The position numbers and the translations under genes were made by a program. 64,000 bases of DNA from Roseomonas sp. (GTDB taxonomy: Bacteria; Pseudomonadota; Alphaproteobacteria; Acetobacterales; Acetobacteraceae), in the NCBI GenBank assembly GCA_020249265.1, contig JADCGA010000003.1, forward strand, positions 1 through 64,000, in the 5' to 3' direction. This document shows positions 3,986 through 25,830 of this stretch, piece after piece; the stretch's first letter is position 1; each line of letters opens with the position of its first letter. The notes under the pieces are model-generated. The model made no database searches, had not been told where the DNA came from, and saw nothing but the letters and a program-made list of their open reading frames with translations.

Positions 3986-5011
3986 TCAGCGGCGCGAAAG
4001 GTCAACCAGCCCCGCGAAACCTGCTTCCGTGCCGAAGGCGAGATGCGTGCCGGAATCACTCCAGGCCAATGCGGAAACCGCGCCGCGACCGGGGGCGGCC
4101 ACGGGCACCACGCGCCCGCTGGCAACCTCGGCGATCAGCACCAGCCCGTCATCAAAGCCGGCGGCCACCACTTCCTGCTGCGGGTGGCAGGCCACGCGCG
4201 TACACAGCGCCTGATCCCCGCCGGCCAATTCGGTTGGCGCCTTGCCCATCGGGCCGCCGCCAAAAAACGGCCAAAGCACAATGCAATCCGCGCCAGATGT
4301 CGCAAGCCAGCGCCCCTTGGCGGTGAAGGCGATGGATTTCGTCTTGGCCGGATAGCCCGCCATGCGCATATGTTGGCCATCCGCCAGGCGCCAGCCATGC
4401 AAGGTGTTTTCCTGCATGGCGGTGACCACATGCGTGCCATCCGGGCTGATCTCAACACCGATATGGCTGCCCTTCCATTCAAGCGAACGCGGCTTGTCTT
4501 CCTTCGCGGCAACAAACCAGAGCGAAGCGCCATTGTAATGGCTGGCGGCGATGCGCTTGCCCTTGGCGTCAAAAGCAATGCCCGTGACCGATGTTGGATG
4601 CGCGAGTGATTTCAGCGCTGCCCCCGCGCCATCCAGCAAATGCACGGCCTTGCCCACAACGGCGGCGCGCAGCCCGCTTTCATGCGCGGCGACATGATCC
4701 ACCCAGCGGCTGCCATAGCGCGCCAATTCAACCAAAGCACCATCCGCGCCAAGGCGCATCAGCCGCCCATCATCGCCGCCGGAAATCACGCCATCCTTGC
4801 CATCGGCGCAAAGCGATAGCACCGCGCCCTGATGCGCTTCATGCTGCGCCCAGGCTTCTTGCGGTGTGGCAATCAGCGCGCGATGCAAAACGCCATCGGT
4901 GGTGCCGAAGATGCAGGTCTTGCCTTCATGGCCAAAAGCAAGCCCCGCGACCCAGGCGCCGAGGTTTTGCGAAACGCCCCGGCTATCCAGCAAATACTCC
5001 GTGCCGCTCAT
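3986..5011 (-). CDS. WD40 repeat protein coupled to CobW GTPase
   Basis: A 341-residue protein made of beta-propeller repeats. Repeated patterns such as [31 protein letters not shown] and [13 protein letters not shown] mark about six or seven blades; no signal peptide or other domain is seen, so it is probably a cytoplasmic scaffold. Its ATG overlaps the TGA of the upstream CobW-type gene by four bases (5008-5011), the standard arrangement for translational coupling. The pairing suggests that the propeller binds or regulates the metallochaperone GTPase, or an apoprotein client; that role is inference. No enzymatic residues are seen. Confidence 0.82.
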
Positions 5012-6039
5012 GCGCCGGGGGGGCTCCAGCGCGCGATTTCGGCATTGATCTTCGCCTCATCCTCGCCAGCCTGGCAGGCTTCAAAACCGCGCCGCAGCCA
5101 GGGGCGGTTCAAATCGCGCCCGATGAATACCAGTTTTGAGCGCCGCGGAACGCCTTCCTTCCAGGGGCCAATGAAATCGCCATCGGCAATCATATGCACC
5201 GCCTGGAAGGCGAAGCGGCGATCATCGCCCTCATAAGCCAGAATGCCTTTGGTGCGCAGCAAATCCTGCCCCTTGCTGGACAGAACCTGCGTGATCCAGG
5301 CGTTGAAACGCTCCGGATCGATCGGGCGATCCACTTCGAAGGAAACGCTGTTCACTTCAGAATCATGTTCGTGATCATCCTCGCCCGAAAGGAATTCCGG
5401 TTCGCGTTCCAGAATGCGTTCCAGGTTGAAGGCATCACGCCCGATCACGGCGCTGATCGGCACATCGGATTTCGTGGCGCGACGAATCTCAGCATAGGGG
5501 TTGATGGCGCGGATGCGCTTTTCCACTTCCGCCGCTTCCGCCTCGCTCACCAGATCCATCTTGTTCAGCACAATAATGTCGGCGAAGGCAATTTGTTCCT
5601 GCGCTTCGGTGGAATCTGCCAAGCGCGCCGGCAGATGCTTGGCATCCACCACGGTCACGATGGCATCCAACTTCGTCGCGCGCTTCACATCATCATCAAC
5701 GAAGAAGGTCTGTGCCACCGGAGCGGGGTCGGCCAAGCCCGTGGTTTCCACGATAATGCCATCAAACTTGTCGCGCCGCTTCATCAGCCCGGCCAGGATG
5801 CGGATCAAATCCCCGCGCACCGTGCAGCAGATGCAGCCATTGTTCATTTCGAACACTTCTTCATCGGCATCCACGACCAGGTCATTATCCACGCCCAATT
5901 CGCCGAATTCATTGATCACGACCGCGAATTTCTGGCCGTGATTTTCGGTGAGGATGCGGTTCAGCAGCGTGGTTTTGCCGGCACCAAGATAGCCGGTCAG
6001 CACGGTTACGGGCACGGGGGCGCGGGTGGTGTCGCTCAC
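5008..6039 (-). CDS. CobW/ZNG1-type GTP-dependent metallochaperone
   Basis: A 343-residue G3E GTPase of the CobW/COG0523 family, which deliver metals (often zinc or cobalt) to client enzymes using GTP. Walker [10 protein letters not shown] is at residues 16-24, the signature metal-binding CICC at 69-72, and the guanine-specificity NKMD at 159-162. A His/Asp/Glu-rich linker (EDDHEHDSE, about 220-228) precedes the CobW C-terminal domain. The start codon is GTG at 6039, with GGAG about nine bases upstream. It is the first gene of a two-gene unit with the WD40 protein. No cobalamin genes are near, so a zinc role is more likely than CobW proper. I could not recognise a convincing Zur operator upstream. 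Confidence 0.88.
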
Positions 6040-6084: not shown

Positions 6085-6110
6085 GCCGGGCAGAGGTCAC
6101 CCCGCCCGGC
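6085..6110 (-). terminator. GC-rich hairpin between aminotransferase and cobW-like gene
   Basis: GCCGGGC at 6085-6091 pairs perfectly with GCCCGGC at 6104-6110 around a 12-base loop. There is no U tract on either strand, so it is at best a weak terminator for the aminotransferase or a structured leader of the CobW-type gene. Confidence 0.3.
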
Positions 6111-6119
6111 AGTGTTATC

Positions 6120-6172
6120 GTTTGGTCGCATTTTCCGAGTCGCCATGTTGGACCACATGGCTTGAAAATGCT
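6120..6172 (-). repeat. Dispersed palindromic repeat, copy A
   Basis: Read on the minus strand, this 53-bp segment matches 44 of 53 positions of the segment at 23695-23747. It begins AGCATTTTCAAGCC, ends GAAAATGCGACCAAAC and contains a hairpin with arms CCATGT and ACATGG (6143-6160). Two of the differences from the other copy are paired changes that preserve the stem. It lies just after the aminotransferase stop codon and inside the leader of the CobW-type gene. The overall pattern resembles small intergenic palindromic elements known in many alphaproteobacteria. Confidence 0.75.
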
Positions 6173-6176
6173 CCGC

Positions 6177-7508
6177 TCATGCGGCTTCCGCCGTAATCGC
6201 CTCAGCCAGGGTATTGATCAGCCGATCCACATGCGGCTTTTCGCAAATCAGCGGCGGCGACATGGCAATGATATCGGCCGTCACGCGGATCAGCACGCCA
6301 TCATCAAAGCAGCGGCGGAAGACATCCAGCGCGCGTTGCGTGGGCTTGCCCGGGCGCGGCGCCAATTCCACCGCGCCGATCAGGCCGACATCGCGAATGT
6401 CAATCACATTCGGCAAACCCTTCAGCGAATGCACCGCATCCTGCCAATAGGGTTCCAGCGCGCGGGCGCGGCCCGGCAAATCCTCGGCACGATGCAGTTC
6501 CAGCGTGGCAATCGCCGCCGCCGCCGCCAAGGGATGCCCGGAATAGGTATAGCCATGGAAGAATTCGATCCCGGCGCTCGTGCCGGTCACGATGGCATCA
6601 TAAATCTCATTCTTCACGGCAACCGCGCCCATGGGCACGGCTGCGTTCGTCAGCCCCTTGGCCATGGTCATGATATCGGGCACCACACTCAGACGCTCCG
6701 CGCCGAAATTGGCGCCAAGCCGGCCAAAACCCGTGATGACCTCATCAAAAATCAGCAGAATGCCGTGCTTGGTGCAGATATCGCGGAGCCGCTTGAGGTA
6801 GCCCACCGGCGGCACCAACACGCCGGTTGAACCCGCCACCGGTTCCACCATGACAGCGGCAATGGTCTCCGCACCATGCAAAGCCACCAGGTTTTCCAGC
6901 ACATCGGCCAATTCGGCGCCATGCGGCGGCTCGCCCCGGCAATAGGCGTTCTTGGCCGGCAGATGCGTATGCGGCAGATGGTCCACATAAGGCAGCAGCG
7001 CGCCGAATTGCTTGCGATTGGGGCCAATGCCACCCACAGACATGCCGCCAAAACCCACACCATGATAGCCGCGTTCGCGCCCGATCAAGCGCACGCGCGA
7101 AGATTCACCGCGCGCCTTGTGATAGGCGAGCGCGATTTTCAGCGCCGTATCGGCGCTTTCGCTGCCTGAATTGGTGAAGAACACCCGGTCCATGCCATCG
7201 GGCGTCATATCCGCCACGCGCGCGGCGGCTTCAAAGGCAATCGGGTGGCCAAGCTGGAAGGCGGGGGCGAAATCCATGATCGCCGCCTGCTTTTGGATCG
7301 CCTCCACAATCTCCCGCCGGCCATGCCCGGCATTGCAGCACCAAAGGCCGGAGGTGCCGTCCAGAATCTCCCGGCCCTCGGGCGTGTAGTAATGCATGCC
7401 CTCAGCGCGGGCGAGCATGCGCGGGCGGTCCTTGAAATACTTATTGTCGGAATAGGGCATCCAGAACGCGTCCAGATTATTCGGGCGCGGCACATTGATC
7501 TCATTCAT
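6177..7508 (-). CDS. Class III omega-amino acid:pyruvate aminotransferase
   Basis: A 443-residue PLP-dependent transaminase, most like beta-alanine/omega-amino acid:pyruvate aminotransferases that transfer a terminal amino group to pyruvate. The class III features are present: NSGSESADTALK (about 113-124) for phosphate binding, DEVITGFGR at 255-263, and the PLP-binding lysine in AKGLTN at residue 284. An SGHP segment lies near 320. The start has GGAGAAG upstream. It is followed by palindromic repeat copy A and preceded by an acyl-CoA synthetase gene in the same direction, but the 67-base gap leaves operon membership open. Precise amine substrate is not readable. Confidence 0.87.
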   Translation of the reverse strand: MNEINVPRPNNLDAFWMPYSDNKYFKDRPRMLARAEGMHYYTPEGREILDGTSGLWCCNAGHGRREIVEAIQKQAAIMDFAPAFQLGHPIAFEAAARVADMTPDGMDRVFFTNSGSESADTALKIALAYHKARGESSRVRLIGRERGYHGVGFGGMSVGGIGPNRKQFGALLPYVDHLPHTHLPAKNAYCRGEPPHGAELADVLENLVALHGAETIAAVMVEPVAGSTGVLVPPVGYLKRLRDICTKHGILLIFDEVITGFGRLGANFGAERLSVVPDIMTMAKGLTNAAVPMGAVAVKNEIYDAIVTGTSAGIEFFHGYTYSGHPLAAAAAIATLELHRAEDLPGRARALEPYWQDAVHSLKGLPNVIDIRDVGLIGAVELAPRPGKPTQRALDVFRRCFDDGVLIRVTADIIAMSPPLICEKPHVDRLINTLAEAITAEAA

Positions 7509-7575: not shown

Positions 7576-9267
7576 TCAGCCCTGCCTTAGTTCCGGGAAA
7601 TCCTCCTCCCGATACTCGCCCTCGGGCCTCACGCCAGCGGCGAAGCGCTTTTCCTCAAGCTGGCGCAGTTCCACGCGCCGGATCTTGCCGGAAATCGTCT
7701 TGGGCAGCTCATGGACTTCCAGGCGCCGCACGCGCTTGAAGGCGGAAAGCCGCCCGCGCAGATGCTGGAAGATGGACAGCATGGTGGATGGGCTCGCCAT
7801 CGCACCGGGCGCCAGCGCGATGAAGGCCTTGGGCACCGCCATGCGCATGGCATCCGGCGCGGGCACCACAGCGGCTTCCGCCACTGCCTCATGCTCTATC
7901 AGCACGCTTTCAAGTTCAAAGGGCGAAATCCGGTAGTCGGAGGCTTTGAAGACATCATCCGCCCGCCCGACATAGGTCAGGTAGCCATCCTGATCCCGAT
8001 TGGCGACATCGCCGGTGCGATAAAACGCCTCACCCGCTGGCAGGATGGCGCCATCATCGCCCTGATAGCCCATCATCAGCCCGGTCGGCGCGGGGTCGAG
8101 CGCAATGCAGACCTCCCCTTCCTCAGCCGGCTTGTCATCGGGGTCGAGCAGCACAATCCGGTAGCCAGGCAAGGGCTTGCCCATGGAGCCTTCCTTCAAC
8201 GCCATCCCCGGCGGATTGCCGATCTGCGCGGTGGTTTCCGTCTGGCCGAAGAAGTCGCGGATGGTGAGCCCCCAGGCTTCGCGCACCTGTTCGATGATTT
8301 CCGGGTTCAGCGGTTCCCCCGCACCTCCCACTTCGCGGAGCGCGGTCGGGAAGGATTTCATCTCTTCCTGCACAAACATCCGCCAAACCGTGGGCGGGGC
8401 GCAAAGGCTGGTGACGCCGTTCGCGGCAATCGCTTCCAGCATGCCGCGCGCATTGAAGCGTGGCTGATTGGCGATAAAGACCGTGGCCCCCGCATTCCAG
8501 GGCGCGAAAAGGCAGGACCAGGCATGCTTGGCCCAGCCAGGTGAGGAAATGTTCAAATGCACATCGCCGGGCCGCAAGCCCAGCACGAACATCGTGGAAA
8601 GATGCCCCACCGGATAGGATTGATGGCTATGCAGCACCAGCTTGGGCCACGCCGTGGTGCCTGAGGTGAAGTAAAGCAGCAGCGGATCGCGGGCCCGCGT
8701 TGGTCCATCGGGCGTGAAGCTCGCGGCGCCCTGGTGCAGCGTTTCATAGCCAACCCAGCCCGGCGGGGTAGCGCCAATGGCAATGCGCGTGACATCATCC
8801 TCAAGCCCCGCGAATTTCGGCGCCTCGGCGGCATTGGCAACCACAAAGCGCGCGCGGCCTCTGGTGAAACGGTCCTTCAAATCATCACCGGCCAACAGCA
8901 TGGTCGCGGGGATCACCACCGCGCCGAGTTTCATCGCCGCCAGCATCACTTCCCACAGCGGCACCACATTGCCGAGCATGAGCAGAATGCGATCCCCGCG
9001 CTTTACGCCCAGCGCGCGCAGCCCATTGGCCACACGGTTGGAGGCGGCGGAAAGCTCGGCAAAGCTTACCTCCGCCGCGCCATCGCCGATGATTTTCAGC
9101 GCCAATTGCTGGCCCTGCGCGCCTTTGGCCAATTCGGCATCGAACCAATCGAGTGCCCAGTTGAAATCACCAAGTTCCGGCCAGCGGAAATCGCGATAGG
9201 CAGTCGCGTAATCGCCGCGCTGCGCCAGCAGGAAATCCCGCGCGGCCTTGAAGGCGGAATGGCTCAT
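7576..9267 (-). CDS. AMP-dependent acyl/aryl-CoA synthetase
   Basis: A 563-residue member of the ANL superfamily, which activates a carboxylate with ATP through an acyl-adenylate and then forms the CoA thioester. Motifs in order: the P-loop-like YFTSGTTAWPKLVLHSHQ (the usual TSGTTGxPK with Ala-Trp in place of Gly-x), the FGQTETT block, GEAFYRTGDVANRDQDGY, and the C-terminal catalytic lysine in LPKTISGKIRR. The length and the N-terminal region resemble medium-chain or 2-aminobenzoate-type CoA ligases. The nearby aminotransferase runs in the same direction, which could fit degradation of an amino acid or aromatic amine, but this is inference. Confidence 0.85.
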   Translation of the reverse strand: MSHSAFKAARDFLLAQRGDYATAYRDFRWPELGDFNWALDWFDAELAKGAQGQQLALKIIGDGAAEVSFAELSAASNRVANGLRALGVKRGDRILLMLGNVVPLWEVMLAAMKLGAVVIPATMLLAGDDLKDRFTRGRARFVVANAAEAPKFAGLEDDVTRIAIGATPPGWVGYETLHQGAASFTPDGPTRARDPLLLYFTSGTTAWPKLVLHSHQSYPVGHLSTMFVLGLRPGDVHLNISSPGWAKHAWSCLFAPWNAGATVFIANQPRFNARGMLEAIAANGVTSLCAPPTVWRMFVQEEMKSFPTALREVGGAGEPLNPEIIEQVREAWGLTIRDFFGQTETTAQIGNPPGMALKEGSMGKPLPGYRIVLLDPDDKPAEEGEVCIALDPAPTGLMMGYQGDDGAILPAGEAFYRTGDVANRDQDGYLTYVGRADDVFKASDYRISPFELESVLIEHEAVAEAAVVPAPDAMRMAVPKAFIALAPGAMASPSTMLSIFQHLRGRLSAFKRVRRLEVHELPKTISGKIRRVELRQLEEKRFAAGVRPEGEYREEDFPELRQG

Positions 9268-9344
9268 GCGCTGATCCTCCCCAACCGCGCGGCTTGGCGC
9301 GGGGCGTTATTGTTTTCAGCGAAAGGCTAACCCGGTGTCCGGGG

Positions 9345-9445
9345 CATTTTCAAGCCGGGAGGCGCCATTTGATGGTTCGGGGTATGTGAGCAACTCTACG
9401 CGCAGGGCGTGTCCGGTGTACCAATTTGAACCGGGTCATTCGGAT
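9345..9445. repeat. Degenerate copy of the composite palindromic repeat
   Basis: TTTTCAAGCC at 9347-9356 and GCGTGTCCGGTG at 9408-9419 occur in the same order as in the brnT-interrupting element and with almost the same spacing (61 versus 60 bases). Between them, the stretches ATTTG, TCGG, ATG and CAA line up with the intact copies. The palindromic arms have decayed. The rest of the 352-base gap between 9268 and 9619 holds only a candidate promoter for the metalloprotease. Confidence 0.5.
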
Positions 9446-9564
9446 TGCGGCTGATCATCACGCTCGGGCTTTTATCGAAATGTATGACATATGCCATGCC
9501 CCGATGAGCCAATTTGGTCTCACACGCAGTGATAGCGGACACTCCAGCAAGCAACTGAATTCAT

Positions 9565-9619: not shown

Positions 9620-11326
9620 ATGTCAGGCATTTATGGAACATTTGGTGCCGATACCCTAGCTGGCACTTCCGGCGCTGACCAAGTCTATGGCTTTGGCGGC
9701 GATGACAGTCTTTCCGGTGGGGTCGGCAACGATGCAATTTTTGGTGACACAGGCAACGATACGCTTGATGGCAGCGTAGGCGATGACTCCCTTTACGGTG
9801 GCGAAGGATATAGTCTATTGCTCGGCCAAACGGGCAATGACTATCTAAGTGTGTTTTATAATGCAGGAAATTCAACATTAGACGGTGGTGAAGGGGCTGA
9901 TTCACTCTATGGCGGGGACAGGAGTGACGACCGCTTTTTAGGCGGTGGTGGCGAGGATTACCTCGTCAGCTACGGGGGCAATGATACCTTCGATGGCGGT
10001 GCCGGCAGCGATACTCTTCGCGGCGGCAATGGCAACGACGTATATTATATCGATAATCTTTTCGGTAGCATCTTCGATTCCGGTGGCAATGACACCGCTT
10101 ATGTTTCAACAAGCTTTGTCACGCTGCCCTCCTCCATTGAGGACGTCGTTTATACGAATGGCGCGGTTCCCTTGCCTTATTGGATTGACGCGCTTTTGCC
10201 TAATTACGAAGGGGGGTATCCTCCCGCCATCCTGTTAGGCCCTTCAAGAACATTCGGATATGCCTTTCCAACAACTGCCCCCAGTTATCTCAGTTATACC
10301 TACACCAATGGTTTCACGGCATTCTCAAGCGTGCAGATCGGTCGCACTCAGGAGGAGTTGAGATATATGGAGAGTATCATTGACGTCCGTTTTGTGCAGA
10401 CCACTAATGCCGCGGCACCAAATGTTTTTTCTTTCGCCAGCAATACTCAATATGGGTCTGGCGGATATGCTTTTTATCCTTCAACTTCTTTTTATGGCAG
10501 CGATGTCTTCCTGAACAATGAAAACTACAACGCCACATTGAGCGATGGCACGTATGGCGCCCTTATCCTTATCCATGAGCTGGGTCACGCCCTCGGATTG
10601 AGGCATCCTTTTGATGAACCAGATGCATATGGCGGCATCGCAGACCCGCCATACCTTCAGGGGGCCGAGGATGATACGGCGTGGTCAGTAATGAGCTACA
10701 ATGATCACCCGGAGCAATATTACCTACGCTTTAGTCCACTGGATATCGCGGCGCTGCAATACCTCTATGGAGTAAGCGCCAATTCACGCTCCTCCAACGA
10801 TACCTATGCCGTTTCTTCGGCGACGGCGAATTTCATTTGGGACGGCAACGGAATTGACTCCATCAGCGCCAGCGGTCTTGGGCAGGGAGCCACCATTTAC
10901 CTGACGCCAGGTTATTGGGGTCATGTCGGACCAAGCAGAGCATCTACCATCACCTCCGCCGGGCAAATCACCGTCAATTTCGGAACCGTGATCGAGAATT
11001 TGACTGGGTCGGGGCATTCAGACTCGTTGTACGGAAATGCGTCCAACAACCAAATCCAGGGTGGTGGAGGCAGCGACCGTATCGAGGGCTGGGAAGGGGA
11101 CGACCGGATCGGGGGAGGCGATGGGAACGATACGCTGTCTGGGGGCACCTTTAATGCGCTTTCAGGAAATACCGGGGCTGATACGCTGGAGGGCGGCGCG
11201 GGCAATGACATGCTGGTGGCCGATGGCGGTGGCGACTTGATGCAAGGCGGTGCTGGTGACGATGTGATTCTGGTGGGTGGCACAGACCAGGCGGCTATCT
11301 TTGCCTTATTTGGTTTACCAGTATAG
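9620..11326 (+). CDS. Secreted RTX metalloprotease, M10/matrixin type
   Basis: A 568-residue protein predicted to be a calcium-dependent, zinc-dependent extracellular protease. It has glycine/aspartate nonapeptide RTX repeats (GGxGNDxLx type) at about residues 8-150 and again at about 475-560, with the catalytic domain between them. The zinc motif HELGHALGLRH starts at residue 319 and the Met-turn SVMSYND has its methionine at 358, as in serralysins. There is no Sec signal and no recognisable propeptide; RTX proteins normally leave by type I secretion through a C-terminal signal. No type I exporter genes are nearby. Base composition is visibly more AT-rich than in flanking genes, consistent with horizontal acquisition. 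RTX repeats before the protease domain are unusual, since serralysins carry them only after it. Confidence 0.85.
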   Translation: MSGIYGTFGADTLAGTSGADQVYGFGGDDSLSGGVGNDAIFGDTGNDTLDGSVGDDSLYGGEGYSLLLGQTGNDYLSVFYNAGNSTLDGGEGADSLYGGDRSDDRFLGGGGEDYLVSYGGNDTFDGGAGSDTLRGGNGNDVYYIDNLFGSIFDSGGNDTAYVSTSFVTLPSSIEDVVYTNGAVPLPYWIDALLPNYEGGYPPAILLGPSRTFGYAFPTTAPSYLSYTYTNGFTAFSSVQIGRTQEELRYMESIIDVRFVQTTNAAAPNVFSFASNTQYGSGGYAFYPSTSFYGSDVFLNNENYNATLSDGTYGALILIHELGHALGLRHPFDEPDAYGGIADPPYLQGAEDDTAWSVMSYNDHPEQYYLRFSPLDIAALQYLYGVSANSRSSNDTYAVSSATANFIWDGNGIDSISASGLGQGATIYLTPGYWGHVGPSRASTITSAGQITVNFGTVIENLTGSGHSDSLYGNASNNQIQGGGGSDRIEGWEGDDRIGGGDGNDTLSGGTFNALSGNTGADTLEGGAGNDMLVADGGGDLMQGGAGDDVILVGGTDQAAIFALFGLPV

Positions 11327-22714: not shown

Positions 22715-23481
22715 TCTAAAGGCTCCTGCCCGAAGGAGGGCGACCATTGCAAATGCTGCCCGCCATCAAGTGCGATCATCTGGCCGGTCATGGACGGCAG
22801 CGACAGGATCGCCATGAGGGCGCGGGCGACTTCCTCAGCGCTGGTGGGGCGCGAGAGTGGCGTTGAGGCCGCCTGCTTGTCGAAATGTTCCTGGGATTGG
22901 CGGGGGCTCGGCAAGGCGGGGCCGGGGCCGATGGCATTCACCCGAATGCGCGGGGCGAGGGCCAGTGCCAGGCTTTGCGTTAGCGCCCAAAGCCCCGCTT
23001 TGGAAACCGTATAGGAAACGAAATGTGGCGTGAGCGACCAGACACGCTGATCCAGCATATTCACCACCAAGCCCTGCGCCGCTTCCGGCAGCGCCTTGGC
23101 GAAACCCTGCGTCAGCACAAAGGGTGCGCGCAGATTGGGTTCAATGTGGCGATCCCAGGATTCCCGCGTCGCATCCTGCCATTCATCACGTTCGAAGGTG
23201 GAGGCGTTATTGACCAGCACACCGAGCGGGCCAAGCGCCTTGGTTGCGTGCGGGATCAGTCGCGCGACTTCCGCTTCCTGGCCGAGTTCCGCTTTCAACG
23301 TGATGGCGCGGCGGCCAAGGGCGCGGATATCGGCGGCCGTGGCCTCGGCGGCTTCGGCGCTGGCGGCATAATGGATGGCGACATCAAAGCCGGCTTCTGC
23401 AAGCGCGAGCGCCATGGCACGGCCAAGCCGCTTGCCGGCGCCCGTGACCAGCGCGGCGGCGGGGATGTTGGAGGGGATCAT
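22711..23481 (-). CDS. Pteridine-reductase-like SDR (FolM type)
   Basis: A 256-residue NAD(P)-dependent short-chain dehydrogenase. The nucleotide loop is TGAGKRLGRAMA; the Arg-Leu-Gly form, in place of the usual Gly-x-Gly, is typical of pteridine reductase and FolM dihydromonapterin reductases. The active-site YTVSK lies near residue 163, and the C-terminal TGQMIALDGGQHL is family-like. Coupling to folB by a four-base overlap supports a role in pterin or folate reduction. The start is uncertain: ATG 23481 lacks a clear ribosome site, whereas ATG 23532 has AAGG upstream and would add 17 residues. Confidence 0.83.
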   Translation of the reverse strand: MIPSNIPAAALVTGAGKRLGRAMALALAEAGFDVAIHYAASAEAAEATAADIRALGRRAITLKAELGQEAEVARLIPHATKALGPLGVLVNNASTFERDEWQDATRESWDRHIEPNLRAPFVLTQGFAKALPEAAQGLVVNMLDQRVWSLTPHFVSYTVSKAGLWALTQSLALALAPRIRVNAIGPGPALPSPRQSQEHFDKQAASTPLSRPTSAEEVARALMAILSLPSMTGQMIALDGGQHLQWSPSFGQEPLE

Positions 23482-23533
23482 GGGCGGGGTGATAGCCCGA
23501 AGGGCGGCGGCTGGTAAGGCTTGCAACGGCATA

Positions 23534-23562
23534 TTGCCTTGTAGAATTACTGTAGCTACATA
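23534..23562 (+). promoter_or_regulatory. brnT promoter with overlapping palindrome (likely BrnA operator)
   Basis: TTGCCT (23534-23539), 17 bases, TACATA (23557-23562). A perfect ten-base palindrome, TGTAGCTACA (23551-23560), overlaps the -10 element. BrnA-type antitoxins are known to repress their own operon by binding inverted repeats in the promoter. The -10 lies only six bases before the brnT ATG, so the native transcript may have been leaderless. Confidence 0.45.
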
Positions 23563-23568
23563 TATCCC

Positions 23569-23944
23569 ATGCGCATCACCTTTGACCCGTCCAAGCGCGC
23601 CAGAACACTGGCCGAACGGGGTTTGGATTTTGCCGATGCGGCGCTGATTTTCGCAGGGCTCCACGCCACGCTTGAAGTTCTGAGGAGAGATTGAAGCTTT
23701 TTCAAGCCAAATGGAATCATTTGGCGACTCGGAAAATGCGACCAAACAAGGCTTTAGTGCGTGTCCGGTGAACGCATGTGAACGGGACCCGCACTAATTT
23801 GAGAAGCGCTTTATCTCAGCCGGGTTTTTGGATGGCCGGCTGGTGGTTCTGGTTTGGACCCCGCGCGGCGCGGCCCGCCGCATCATTTCCATGAGGCACG
23901 CCCATGCCGAAGAAGAAACACGCTGGCGCCAATACCTGGGTTGA
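23569..23944 (+). pseudogene. brnT: brnT toxin gene interrupted by a palindromic repeat
   Basis: BrnT is a RelE-like ribonuclease toxin. The first part encodes 41 residues (MRITFDPSKRARTLAERG through LEVLRRD) and matches the BrnT N-terminus, then stops with TGA at 23692-23694. After about 109 bases of repeat, reading resumes at 23801 with EKRFISAGFLDGRLVVLVW and continues through TPRGAARRIISMRHAHAEEE to a TGA at 23942-23944, the typical BrnT C-terminus. The missing junction normally reads RRDYGExRFISAGF, so only a few bases were replaced. The 3' fragment overlaps the brnA start by 41 bases, the usual arrangement. The toxin must be inactive. Confidence 0.88.
23692..23800 (+). repeat. Composite palindromic repeat (copy B) inserted in brnT
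   Basis: The first half (23695-23747) is the 53-bp core shared with 6120-6172; its hairpin arms are CCAAAT and ATTTGG (23707-23724). The second half contains AGTGCGTGTCC (23756-23766) pairing with GGACCCGCACT (23785-23795), ten of eleven positions. The borders are inferred from where the BrnT reading frame breaks and resumes. TTGA occurs at both ends (23691-23694 and 23799-23802), but a true target duplication is not demonstrated. Confidence 0.8.
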
Positions 23945-24170
23945 TCCCGATGATGCGCCGCCGCTGACCGACGCATTCTTCGCCAAGGCGGAGGTCAAGG
24001 ATGGTGCGCGGCTTGTCCGTCGCGGTCGGCCGCCTCTGCCACAGGCCAAGCGCCAGGTGACGCTGCGCCTGGACCCGGACCTGCTGGATCGCCTGCGCGC
24101 CAGCGGCCCAGGCTGGCAAACACGCGTGAACAAGGCGCTGCGCGATTGGCTGAAGAAACAGGCGGCCTGA
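23904..24170 (+). CDS. brnA: BrnA family antitoxin (orphaned)
   Basis: An 88-residue protein of the BrnA type: an N-terminal toxin-interacting segment with NTWVDPDDAPPLTDAFFAKAE, a basic linker RRGRPPLPQAKRQ, and a C-terminal ribbon-helix-helix DNA-binding segment VTLRLDPDLLDRLRASGPGWQTRVNKALRDWL. It would neutralise BrnT and repress the operon. It is intact and in the normal overlapping position, but its toxin partner is broken by a repeat, so it is a solitary antitoxin here. It may still act as a DNA-binding repressor. Confidence 0.88.
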   Translation: MPKKKHAGANTWVDPDDAPPLTDAFFAKAEVKDGARLVRRGRPPLPQAKRQVTLRLDPDLLDRLRASGPGWQTRVNKALRDWLKKQAA

Positions 24171-24219
24171 TACGCCACGCGCGACAAGCGCTGCTTCTCC
24201 TGCTAACCCCCGGCGCATC

Positions 24220-25830
24220 ATGTCTGACACCACCATTCCCGCCGCCCGTATCGCCGAAGAAGCCGCCCGCAGGCGGAGCTTTGCCATCATCGCCCATCCG
24301 GATGCGGGCAAAACCACGCTCACGGAAAAACTGCTGCTCAAGGGCGGTGCCATTCAGCTTGCCGGCGCGGTGCGCGCCAAGGGCAATGCGCGGCGCACGC
24401 GATCTGACTGGATGAAGATTGAACAGGATCGCGGGATTTCGGTGGCGACCTCCGTCATGACTTTTGAACGTGATGGTGTGGTCTTCAACCTGCTGGACAC
24501 GCCAGGCCACGAGGATTTTTCGGAAGATACCTATCGCACCCTGACCGCGGTGGATGCCGCCGTGATGGTGCTGGATGCCGCCAAGGGGATCGAGAGCCAA
24601 ACACGCAAGCTGTTTGAAGTCTGTCGCATGCGCGACATTCCGATCATTACCTTCATCAACAAGATGGACCGCGAAGCGCGCGAACCTTTCGAATTGCTGG
24701 ATGAGATTCAGAATTTGCTCGCGCTTGATGCGACACCCGCCGCCTGGCCGGTGGGGCGCGCCGCTGATTTTGCCGGGGTTTATGATTTGGCGACTGATCG
24801 TTTCCTGCCGGTGGCTGAAGGCGCTGAACCGATCCAGCTTGAATCGCCGGAAGACCCGAAACTTGCCGCGCTGGTCGGTGATGAAAGGGCTTTGGCCCTT
24901 TCCGAGGAAGTGCTGCTGGCCCGCGCCGGCTATCCCGAATTCAATGCGGATCGCTTTCTGGAAGGGTCATTGACGCCGGTGTTTTTCGGCTCCGCGCTGC
25001 GTGATTTCGGCATTGCGCACTTGCTGGATGGGCTGGCGCGCCATGCGCCACCGCCGCGCGCGCGGCCGGCAGATCAGCGCCTGGTGACACCTGGTGAGGA
25101 AAAACTGACGGGCTTTGTCTTCAAAATTCAGGCGAATATGGACCCCAACCACCGCGACCGCGTGGCCTTTGTGCGGCTATGCAGCGGGCGCCTCACCAAG
25201 GGCATGCGGCTGCGCCAAAGCCGCACCGGCAAGCAAGTGCCGGTGAATGCGCCGCTGTTTTTCTTTGCGAAAGATCGGCAAGTGGCGGAAGAAGCCTGGC
25301 CTGGCGATGTGATCGGCATTGCCAATCACGGCACGCTGCGCATTGGCGATACGCTGACGGAGGGAGAGGCTTTGGATTTCCGCGGTGTGCCTTCCTTCGC
25401 GCCAGAAATCCTGCGCCATATCCGCCTGGATGATCCGATGCTGGCCAAGAAGCTGCGCACTGCGCTTGATCAATTGGCGGAAGAAGGCGTGGTGCAGTTG
25501 TTCCGCCCACGCGATGGCTCCCCGCCCGTTGTCGGCGTGGTGGGGCAATTGCAGTTGGATGTGCTGCAAAGCCGGCTGCGTGTGGAATATGGCGTGCCAG
25601 CAGGCTTTGATGCCACGCCCTGGGAACAGGTGCGTTGGATTGCCTCGACCGAAGCGGGCGCTTTGGAACGTTTCGCGGAAGCCAATCGGCGTGATGTCGC
25701 GGAAGACCACGATGGCGCGCTGGTGGCATTCTTCAGCAGCGATTGGCGCCGACGCCGCGCGGAAGAAGAATGGCCGATGCTGCGCTTTCACGCCGTGCGC
25801 GAACAGCATGGGGTGGGCGGGGGGAAGTAA
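24220..25830 (+). CDS. prfC: Peptide chain release factor 3
   Basis: A 536-residue translational GTPase that recycles RF1/RF2 from the ribosome after termination. G1 motif AHPDAGKTT begins near residue 25, followed by the switch-region segment WMKIEQDRGISV, G3 DTPGHEDFSEDTYR near 92 and G4 NKMDRE near 147. The beta-barrel and RF3-specific C-terminal domains follow (FRGVPSFAPE, VEYGVPAGFDATPWE). Length is normal. The start follows the brnA stop by 49 bases with only a weak ribosome-binding site. A strong terminator hairpin overlaps its stop codon. Confidence 0.95.
   Translation: MSDTTIPAARIAEEAARRRSFAIIAHPDAGKTTLTEKLLLKGGAIQLAGAVRAKGNARRTRSDWMKIEQDRGISVATSVMTFERDGVVFNLLDTPGHEDFSEDTYRTLTAVDAAVMVLDAAKGIESQTRKLFEVCRMRDIPIITFINKMDREAREPFELLDEIQNLLALDATPAAWPVGRAADFAGVYDLATDRFLPVAEGAEPIQLESPEDPKLAALVGDERALALSEEVLLARAGYPEFNADRFLEGSLTPVFFGSALRDFGIAHLLDGLARHAPPPRARPADQRLVTPGEEKLTGFVFKIQANMDPNHRDRVAFVRLCSGRLTKGMRLRQSRTGKQVPVNAPLFFFAKDRQVAEEAWPGDVIGIANHGTLRIGDTLTEGEALDFRGVPSFAPEILRHIRLDDPMLAKKLRTALDQLAEEGVVQLFRPRDGSPPVVGVVGQLQLDVLQSRLRVEYGVPAGFDATPWEQVRWIASTEAGALERFAEANRRDVAEDHDGALVAFFSSDWRRRRAEEEWPMLRFHAVREQHGVGGGK

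What the first reader, a model, noticed from the sequence alone, without database searches (positions are those of the whole stretch)
23569..24170. Toxin gene brnT split by a small palindromic element, antitoxin brnA intact
Sequence shows a BrnT N-terminal 41 codons, about 109 bases of palindromic repeat, then the BrnT C-terminal frame, followed by complete brnA. It gives a natural example of a toxin inactivated by a non-coding element while the antitoxin and its probable operator survive, so BrnA may have become a free regulator. The insertion removed only a few codons, so the event looks precise.
Basis: partly seen in the sequence, partly recalled or inferred. Interest (0 to 1): 0.7.

Follow-up and report, generated by a model that had tools for sequence, protein, structure and literature searches.

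The report
Toxin gene broken by repeat element
In a bacterium related to Roseomonas, a common 103-base hairpin repeat has landed inside the toxin gene of a toxin-antitoxin pair and broken it while the antitoxin gene stayed whole, an ordinary kind of gene loss that has also happened by other routes in two related species.

Summary
Window 23569-24170 carries a brnTA pair (PF04365, PF14384). brnT is split by one copy of a dispersed palindromic element; brnA is complete. The brnT-to-brnA start distance is 335 bases here and 232 in all six relatives without an indel in brnT: a net gain of 103, the size of a clean insertion of the same element elsewhere. No codons were lost on balance. None of those six has the insert; in two more relatives the site itself is deleted. 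The element has 44 places in this genome, itself included, 25-39 matches in each of 19 of 35 congeners, end-to-end matches in 10 other of 142 alphaproteobacterial genomes and covarying stem-loops. It resembles the 103-base Bru-RS1 repeat of Brucella in size and build; homology is unproven. Three of 9 brnTA genomes have a broken brnT and an intact brnA, none with another BrnT. That BrnA became a free regulator is not supported: its putative operator occurs once in the genome, and selection cannot be told from recency. Ordinary pseudogenisation; the element is the more interesting part.

The parts
23551..23560 (.). Perfect palindrome TGTAGCTACA just upstream of brnT; putative BrnA operator overlapping a putative -10 element
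   Evidence: Exact in 8 of 9 brnTA loci, one mismatch in G030; only exact copy in the own genome. Operator role is inferred.
23569..23694 (+). brnT N-terminal piece, 41 codons, closed by a stop at the left junction
   Evidence: ORF; PF04365 positions 1-28, E 5.3e-4
23695..23797 (.). 103-base two-hairpin palindromic element (model match spans 23691-23797), inserted in brnT
   Evidence: 44 places in own genome, itself included; 23 of 35 congeners; net +103; covariation of the family; cmsearch 119 bits, but this copy is a member of the model's own alignment
23798..23944 (+). brnT C-terminal piece in another frame; overlaps the start of brnA
   Evidence: PF04365 positions 40-77, E 2.2e-10 (queried as 23801-23944)
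23904..24170 (+). brnA antitoxin, 88 aa, intact, ribbon-helix-helix type C-terminal part (motif recalled)
   Evidence: PF14384, E 1.4e-23; intact in 9 of 9 brnTA loci

Best explanation
brnT of this species is a pseudogene, broken by insertion of one copy of a dispersed, palindromic, non-autonomous 103-base element. The insert adds 103 bases (not a multiple of three); the N-terminal frame closes at the left junction and the rest of BrnT lies in another frame. brnA keeps its frame, a possible ribosome-binding site inside the brnT remnant and the upstream palindrome, so it is probably still transcribed from the old promoter through the remnant (inferred). BrnA is then an orphan antitoxin with no known partner left in this genome. 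It most likely persists because the loss is recent and unopposed: antitoxin loss is harmful while the toxin works, toxin loss is free (established knowledge, recalled). Shown: the anatomy, the element family, the precise length, absence of the insert in six relatives, absence of another BrnT match. Inferred: loss of toxin activity, continued expression of brnA, recency.
For: Pfam matches of the separate pieces. Uninterrupted brnT at the same place in six relatives. Net +103, and the same element as a clean 103-base insertion at another site, with contiguous empty sites in G019 and G031. Dispersed family: 44 places in the own genome, 23 of 35 congeners. No other BrnT match in G000. The same outcome by other routes: deletions in brnT of G028 and G022 with brnA intact.
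Against: No expression or toxicity data. Recency rests on few changes and is not clear-cut: the G000 brnT remnants carry 3 synonymous and 2 non-synonymous singletons in codons 1-40 and 1 and 0 in the C-piece. No near-identical source copy was found: the best other copy in the own genome is 88% and the best listed in the genus 93% (only part of the candidates were scored), which is odd for a very recent jump. The N- and C-parts look mosaic, so recombination may have moved the allele.
Confidence: 0.88

Rival explanations
1. BrnA has been kept by selection after toxin loss as a stand-alone DNA-binding regulator or as a guard against incoming BrnT toxins (anti-addiction).
For: Three of 9 brnTA genomes have a broken brnT but an intact brnA and the exact upstream palindrome; none of the three has another BrnT match. 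Between the two deletion genomes brnA shows Sd 11.0 and Nd 2.0, ratio 0.06.
Against: The exact palindrome occurs once in the genome. G022 and G028 have few terminal changes in brnA (4 syn and 2 nonsyn; 3 and 0) and the date of the deletions on those branches is unknown. Seven congeners lack the pair at this locus and have no BrnA match at all, so BrnA is dispensable in the clade.
Confidence: 0.12
2. The inserted element acts on the brnA transcript (stability, termination or translation) and was kept for that.
For: The element folds well (-38.8 kcal/mol, z -4.2) and the stem-loops of its family covary; it is weakly similar to a Brucella sRNA family.
Against: The family is dispersed at unrelated sites. 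The simple terminator scan found 2 sites in 23400-24250 (1.3 expected), neither at the element. Covariation speaks for the family, not for a role at this place.
Confidence: 0.08
3. A functional BrnT is still made by recoding or RNA processing.
For: None found; both pieces remain similar to BrnT.
Against: A stop at the left junction, a stop at the right end of the element in the C-terminal frame, and a frame change; the element has no intron features that I know of (recalled, not tested); none of the six relatives that keep the site shares the two-part gene.
Confidence: 0.02
4. Assembly artefact of a draft genome at a repeat.
For: Draft assembly in 72 contigs with many element copies.
Against: The copy is only 88% identical to the nearest own copy found, short enough for single reads to span, and both flanks are the two parts of the same gene in conserved order. 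No reads were available.
Confidence: 0.02

Closest known systems
BrnT/BrnA type II toxin-antitoxin system (PF04365/PF14384)
   Same: Toxin before antitoxin, overlapping genes, palindrome upstream, both families matched
   Different: The toxin gene is interrupted; not a working pair here
Bru-RS1/Bru-RS2 palindromic repeats of Brucella (Halling and Bricker 1994, seen only as a citation)
   Same: 103-105 bases, palindromic, dispersed, 35-40 described copies (table in PMC2267715, passages; 103 bp for Bru-RS1 in PMC3163539, passages)
   Different: Sequences not compared; only sub-threshold matches to the Brucella sRNA family BASRCI27, whose relation to Bru-RS is my guess
Rickettsia palindromic elements
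   Same: Small palindromic elements of alphaproteobacteria found inside genes (PMC10969869, passages)
   Different: Those are reported to make in-frame fusions; here the frame is broken. No sequence relation tested
REP/BIME elements moved by RAYT transposases (features recalled)
   Same: Dispersed imperfect palindromes, mosaic arrangement of modules, no target duplication
   Different: No Y1_Tnp match in 34 of 35 congeners, own genome included
Orphan antitoxins of Klebsiella and E. coli
   Same: Antitoxin genes without a paired toxin are common (PMC7192599 and PMC10790755, passages)
   Different: There surveyed in bulk; here the inactivating event is visible

Membership tests
BrnT toxin | Complete PF04365 domain in one frame | tested here: not met
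   Two partial matches in different frames, positions 1-28 and 40-77 of 77
BrnA antitoxin | Complete PF14384 domain downstream of brnT | tested here: met
   Positions 1-68 of 68, 83.5 bits against a cut-off of 26.1
BrnA antitoxin | Binds its own operator and neutralises BrnT | not testable with these tools
   Only the conserved upstream palindrome was seen
Bru-RS repeats | Length 103-105 bases, palindromic, dispersed | tested here: met
   Net 103 bases, hairpins, 44 places
Bru-RS repeats | Sequence homology with the Brucella copies | tested here: inconclusive
   Only BASRCI27, 20.6-30.5 bits against a gathering score of 59.8; matched in 5 of 6 genus loci and 0 of 10 loci from other genera; no Bru-RS sequence compared
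REP element with RAYT | Y1 transposase (PF01797) in the genome | tested here: not met
   0 matches in G000; 1 of 35 genomes; 5 of 14 control genomes positive
MITE of a DDE insertion sequence | Target site duplication | tested here: not met
   None at L089 site A, none seen at brnT; the two L090 sites have altered junctions and are less clear
MITE of a DDE insertion sequence | Parent insertion sequence with the same ends | not tested

The most novel reading that the evidence does not exclude
The element belongs to an alphaproteobacteria-wide family of structure-conserved 103-107 base elements that still moves, inserts without target duplication, and has no Y1 partner (IS200/REP type) and no consistent IS110 or IS91 partner in the genomes that carry it, so its mobility depends on an undescribed machinery.
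Probability: 0.3. Interest if true: 0.55.

Novelty: new member of a known kind. Interest (0 to 1): 0.3.

Why it matters
It shows a visible inactivating event behind an orphan antitoxin and, with the two deletion alleles, repeated toxin loss with antitoxin retention in one small clade: a natural series in which to test whether orphan antitoxins are kept for a reason. The element family offers filled and empty sites for working out how such small palindromic repeats move without a recognised transposase.

Tried and rejected
Looking for a transposase partner: Y1_Tnp in 1 of 35 congeners, IS91-type Y2_Tnp in 1 of 35 (0 of its 14 control genomes had a hit, so sensitivity was not shown), IS110 in 13 of 35, 7 of the 19 element-rich genomes and 6 of the other 16: no association. 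Looking for a BrnA regulon by the exact palindrome: one place only. The sigma-70 scan found no promoter at its threshold (0 found, 0.2 expected). The Rfam link to BASRCI27 stays under the gathering score in all tries, and none of 10 loci from other genera matched it. The prfC gene tree (2 of 13 inner branches well supported) is too weakly resolved to count losses of the pair. In one search the brnT starts of G028 and G022 were mislocated, so their N-part counts there are void; redone. The second element in L089 gave no comparable empty site. A literature search joining orphan antitoxin, toxin gene and pseudogene gave 0 papers. The BrnTA structure paper is not held, so statements on BrnT biochemistry are recalled. 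Gene context of all element copies was not tested for lack of annotation.

Full report
WHERE. The window lies in an unnamed 3.96 Mb draft genome in 72 contigs (G000:C23). Of 9 named loci found by BrnA, five (87-92% identical) are MAGs deposited as Roseomonas sp., one (95%) is an uncultured Rhodospirillales, one (94%) an Alphaproteobacteria bacterium, and two (49% and 40%) are distant.

OBSERVATION. ORFs at 23569-23694 (41 codons) and 23904-24170 (88 codons) are present. The first and the later frame 23801-23944 match the start (positions 1-28, E 5.3e-4) and the rest (positions 40-77, E 2.2e-10) of PF04365 BrnT; 23904-24170 matches all of PF14384 BrnA (E 1.4e-23). Downstream lies prfC (PF16658 RF3_C), upstream an SDR-like gene on the other strand (name recalled from its sequence; its Pfam query failed).

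RELATIVES. Of 35 genomes of the genus, own included, 11 have a BrnA match: 9 (own included) at 88-100% identity and two distant at 44-45%. A search by prfC let me read the SDR-prfC junction in 16 genomes: brnTA in 9, absent in 7 (G031, G023, G026, G018, G024, G020, G017), and those 7 have no BrnA match anywhere. The other 19 genomes were not resolved at this junction: 16 carry a prfC only 75-77% identical (the stretch before it was printed for one, G012), and G003, G004 and G005 have it cut by contig ends or no good match. In the 9 brnTA loci: brnT is uninterrupted in G025, G030, G027, G019 and G021; uninterrupted but with ACG where the others have the ATG start in G032; carries internal deletions in G028 and G022; carries the element in G000. 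In G028 and G022 the deletion takes in the insertion site, so whether they ever had the element cannot be told. brnA is intact in 9 of 9. So three different lesions broke brnT and none broke brnA in these genomes.

INSERTION. The brnT-to-brnA start distance is 335 in the window and 232 in all six relatives without an indel: a net gain of 103 bases. A few bases at the junction differ from the relatives, without net loss. At another site of the family (L089, element about 1091-1193) G032 shares the filled site and eight of nine searched genomes are empty; G019 and G031 are contiguous across a gap of exactly 103 query bases, and from the match coordinates the net difference is 103 in six of the eight and 102 in two (G021, G022). 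No target duplication is visible there. At two sites in L090 the junctions are less clean and some bases are replaced.

ELEMENT FAMILY. 44 places in the own genome, itself included, with only 40 of 160 candidates scored, so a lower bound. With a profile these split into 28 full-length and 16 left-half copies, counting places once (my tally of its 46 rows, two of which repeat a place). Adjacent left halves occur (L105, L109, L113), so the family is modular. In the genus 23 of 35 genomes match: 19 with 25-39 matches each (25 candidates scored per genome, so lower bounds), 4 with one each. Of 76 profile rows over own and congener loci, 51 distinct full-length copies plus the window copy were aligned; the rest were partial, cut or repeated. 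The consensus has a left stem-loop (two helices) and a right one; 95.2% of cells pair, 19 of 31 pairs have changes on both sides, 91 such cells against 24.4 in shuffles, with 0 of 500 shuffles as high and sharp loss when slid. The structure was derived from this same alignment and the copies are related, so these controls are generous. The covariance model finds end-to-end matches in 10 other genomes of 142 drawn from the class, up to 18 in one; 131 had none under stricter filters. Two of the aligned matches from other genera end in CTAGAGC/GCTCTAG. Partial matches occur on 20 Agrobacterium and 1 Novosphingobium plasmid records, none over 80% of the element, 59% in the 15 rows shown. The Rfam family BASRCI27 of Brucella matches over its full model, but at 20.6-30.5 bits against a cut-off of 59.8; it matched 5 of 6 loci of the genus and none of the 10 from other genera. 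Covariation of palindromic DNA can come from selection on RNA or on a DNA hairpin; the data do not say which.

MOBILITY. Filled sites differ between species (brnT; L089 site A; both L090 sites), so the family has moved within the clade. No consistent partner was seen: Y1_Tnp in 1 of 35 genomes, own none; Y2_Tnp in 1 of 35, with a control that never rings; IS110 in 13 of 35, own included, with no association.

ORPHAN BRNA. G000 has only its broken BrnT; G022 and G028 have no BrnT match. brnA ratios of dN to dS lie between 0.03 and 0.24 over all 36 pairs, but these mix lineages with and without a complete brnT. Singletons in brnA codons 15-88 are 0 synonymous and 1 non-synonymous in G000, 3 and 0 in G028, 4 and 2 in G022: too few to show selection after toxin loss. 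In the brnT remnant of G000 there are 3 and 2 in codons 1-40 and 1 and 0 in the C-piece. The palindrome TGTAGCTACA is kept in all three broken loci but its exact form occurs once in the genome, so no regulon is seen. A promoter with TTGCCT, 17 bases, TACATA overlapping the palindrome can be read by eye; the scan did not score it.

MECHANISM. Most likely a neutral loss: the insertion ended BrnT, BrnA stays because nothing has yet removed it. The order toxin first, antitoxin later is what the biology of type II pairs predicts (established knowledge, recalled). Orphan antitoxins are common in Klebsiella and E. coli (PMC7192599, PMC10790755; passages).

LITERATURE. Bru-RS: passages of PMC2267715 and PMC3163539. 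BASRCI27: one table row in PMC9751625. Small palindromic elements inside genes and gene inactivation by MITEs: passages of PMC10969869. Of the papers in the listings, I opened only those cited here and PMC2873474 (passages).

VERDICT. Observation confirmed; pseudogene by repeat insertion; ordinary in kind. The free-regulator idea remains possible but unsupported. The element family deserves more attention than the toxin.

Noticed in passing
window 6085-6176 (-): A second copy of the element's left module with a different right hairpin (63 bits), directly beside the stop of a 443-aa ORF (6177-7508 -), in the gap to the ORF 5008-6039 (-).
   Followed up: partly
window 9339-9448 (+): A diverged element match (29 bits) between ORFs 7576-9267 (-) and 9620-11326 (+).
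   Followed up: partly
window 23569-23903: brnT looks mosaic: the N-part is closest to G030/G032 (10-11 of 111 differences, 20 to G025), the C-part closest to G025 (2 of 103, 6-8 to G032/G030); recombination near the insertion is possible.
   Followed up: partly
G032 brnTA locus (L011): The otherwise uninterrupted brnT has ACG where the others have the ATG start.
   Followed up: no
G024:C53:5408-5641 (L152): A BrnT gene at another locus in a congener that lacks the pair at the SDR-prfC site and has no BrnA match.
   Followed up: no
L089 element at 1091-1193 and G032 (L121): The element copy shared at this site looks identical by eye between two species whose aligned stretch is 89% identical, which could mean constraint or recent exchange.
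   Followed up: no
G020 SDR-prfC junction (L043): A different extra stretch of about 120 bases sits between SDR and prfC.
   Followed up: no
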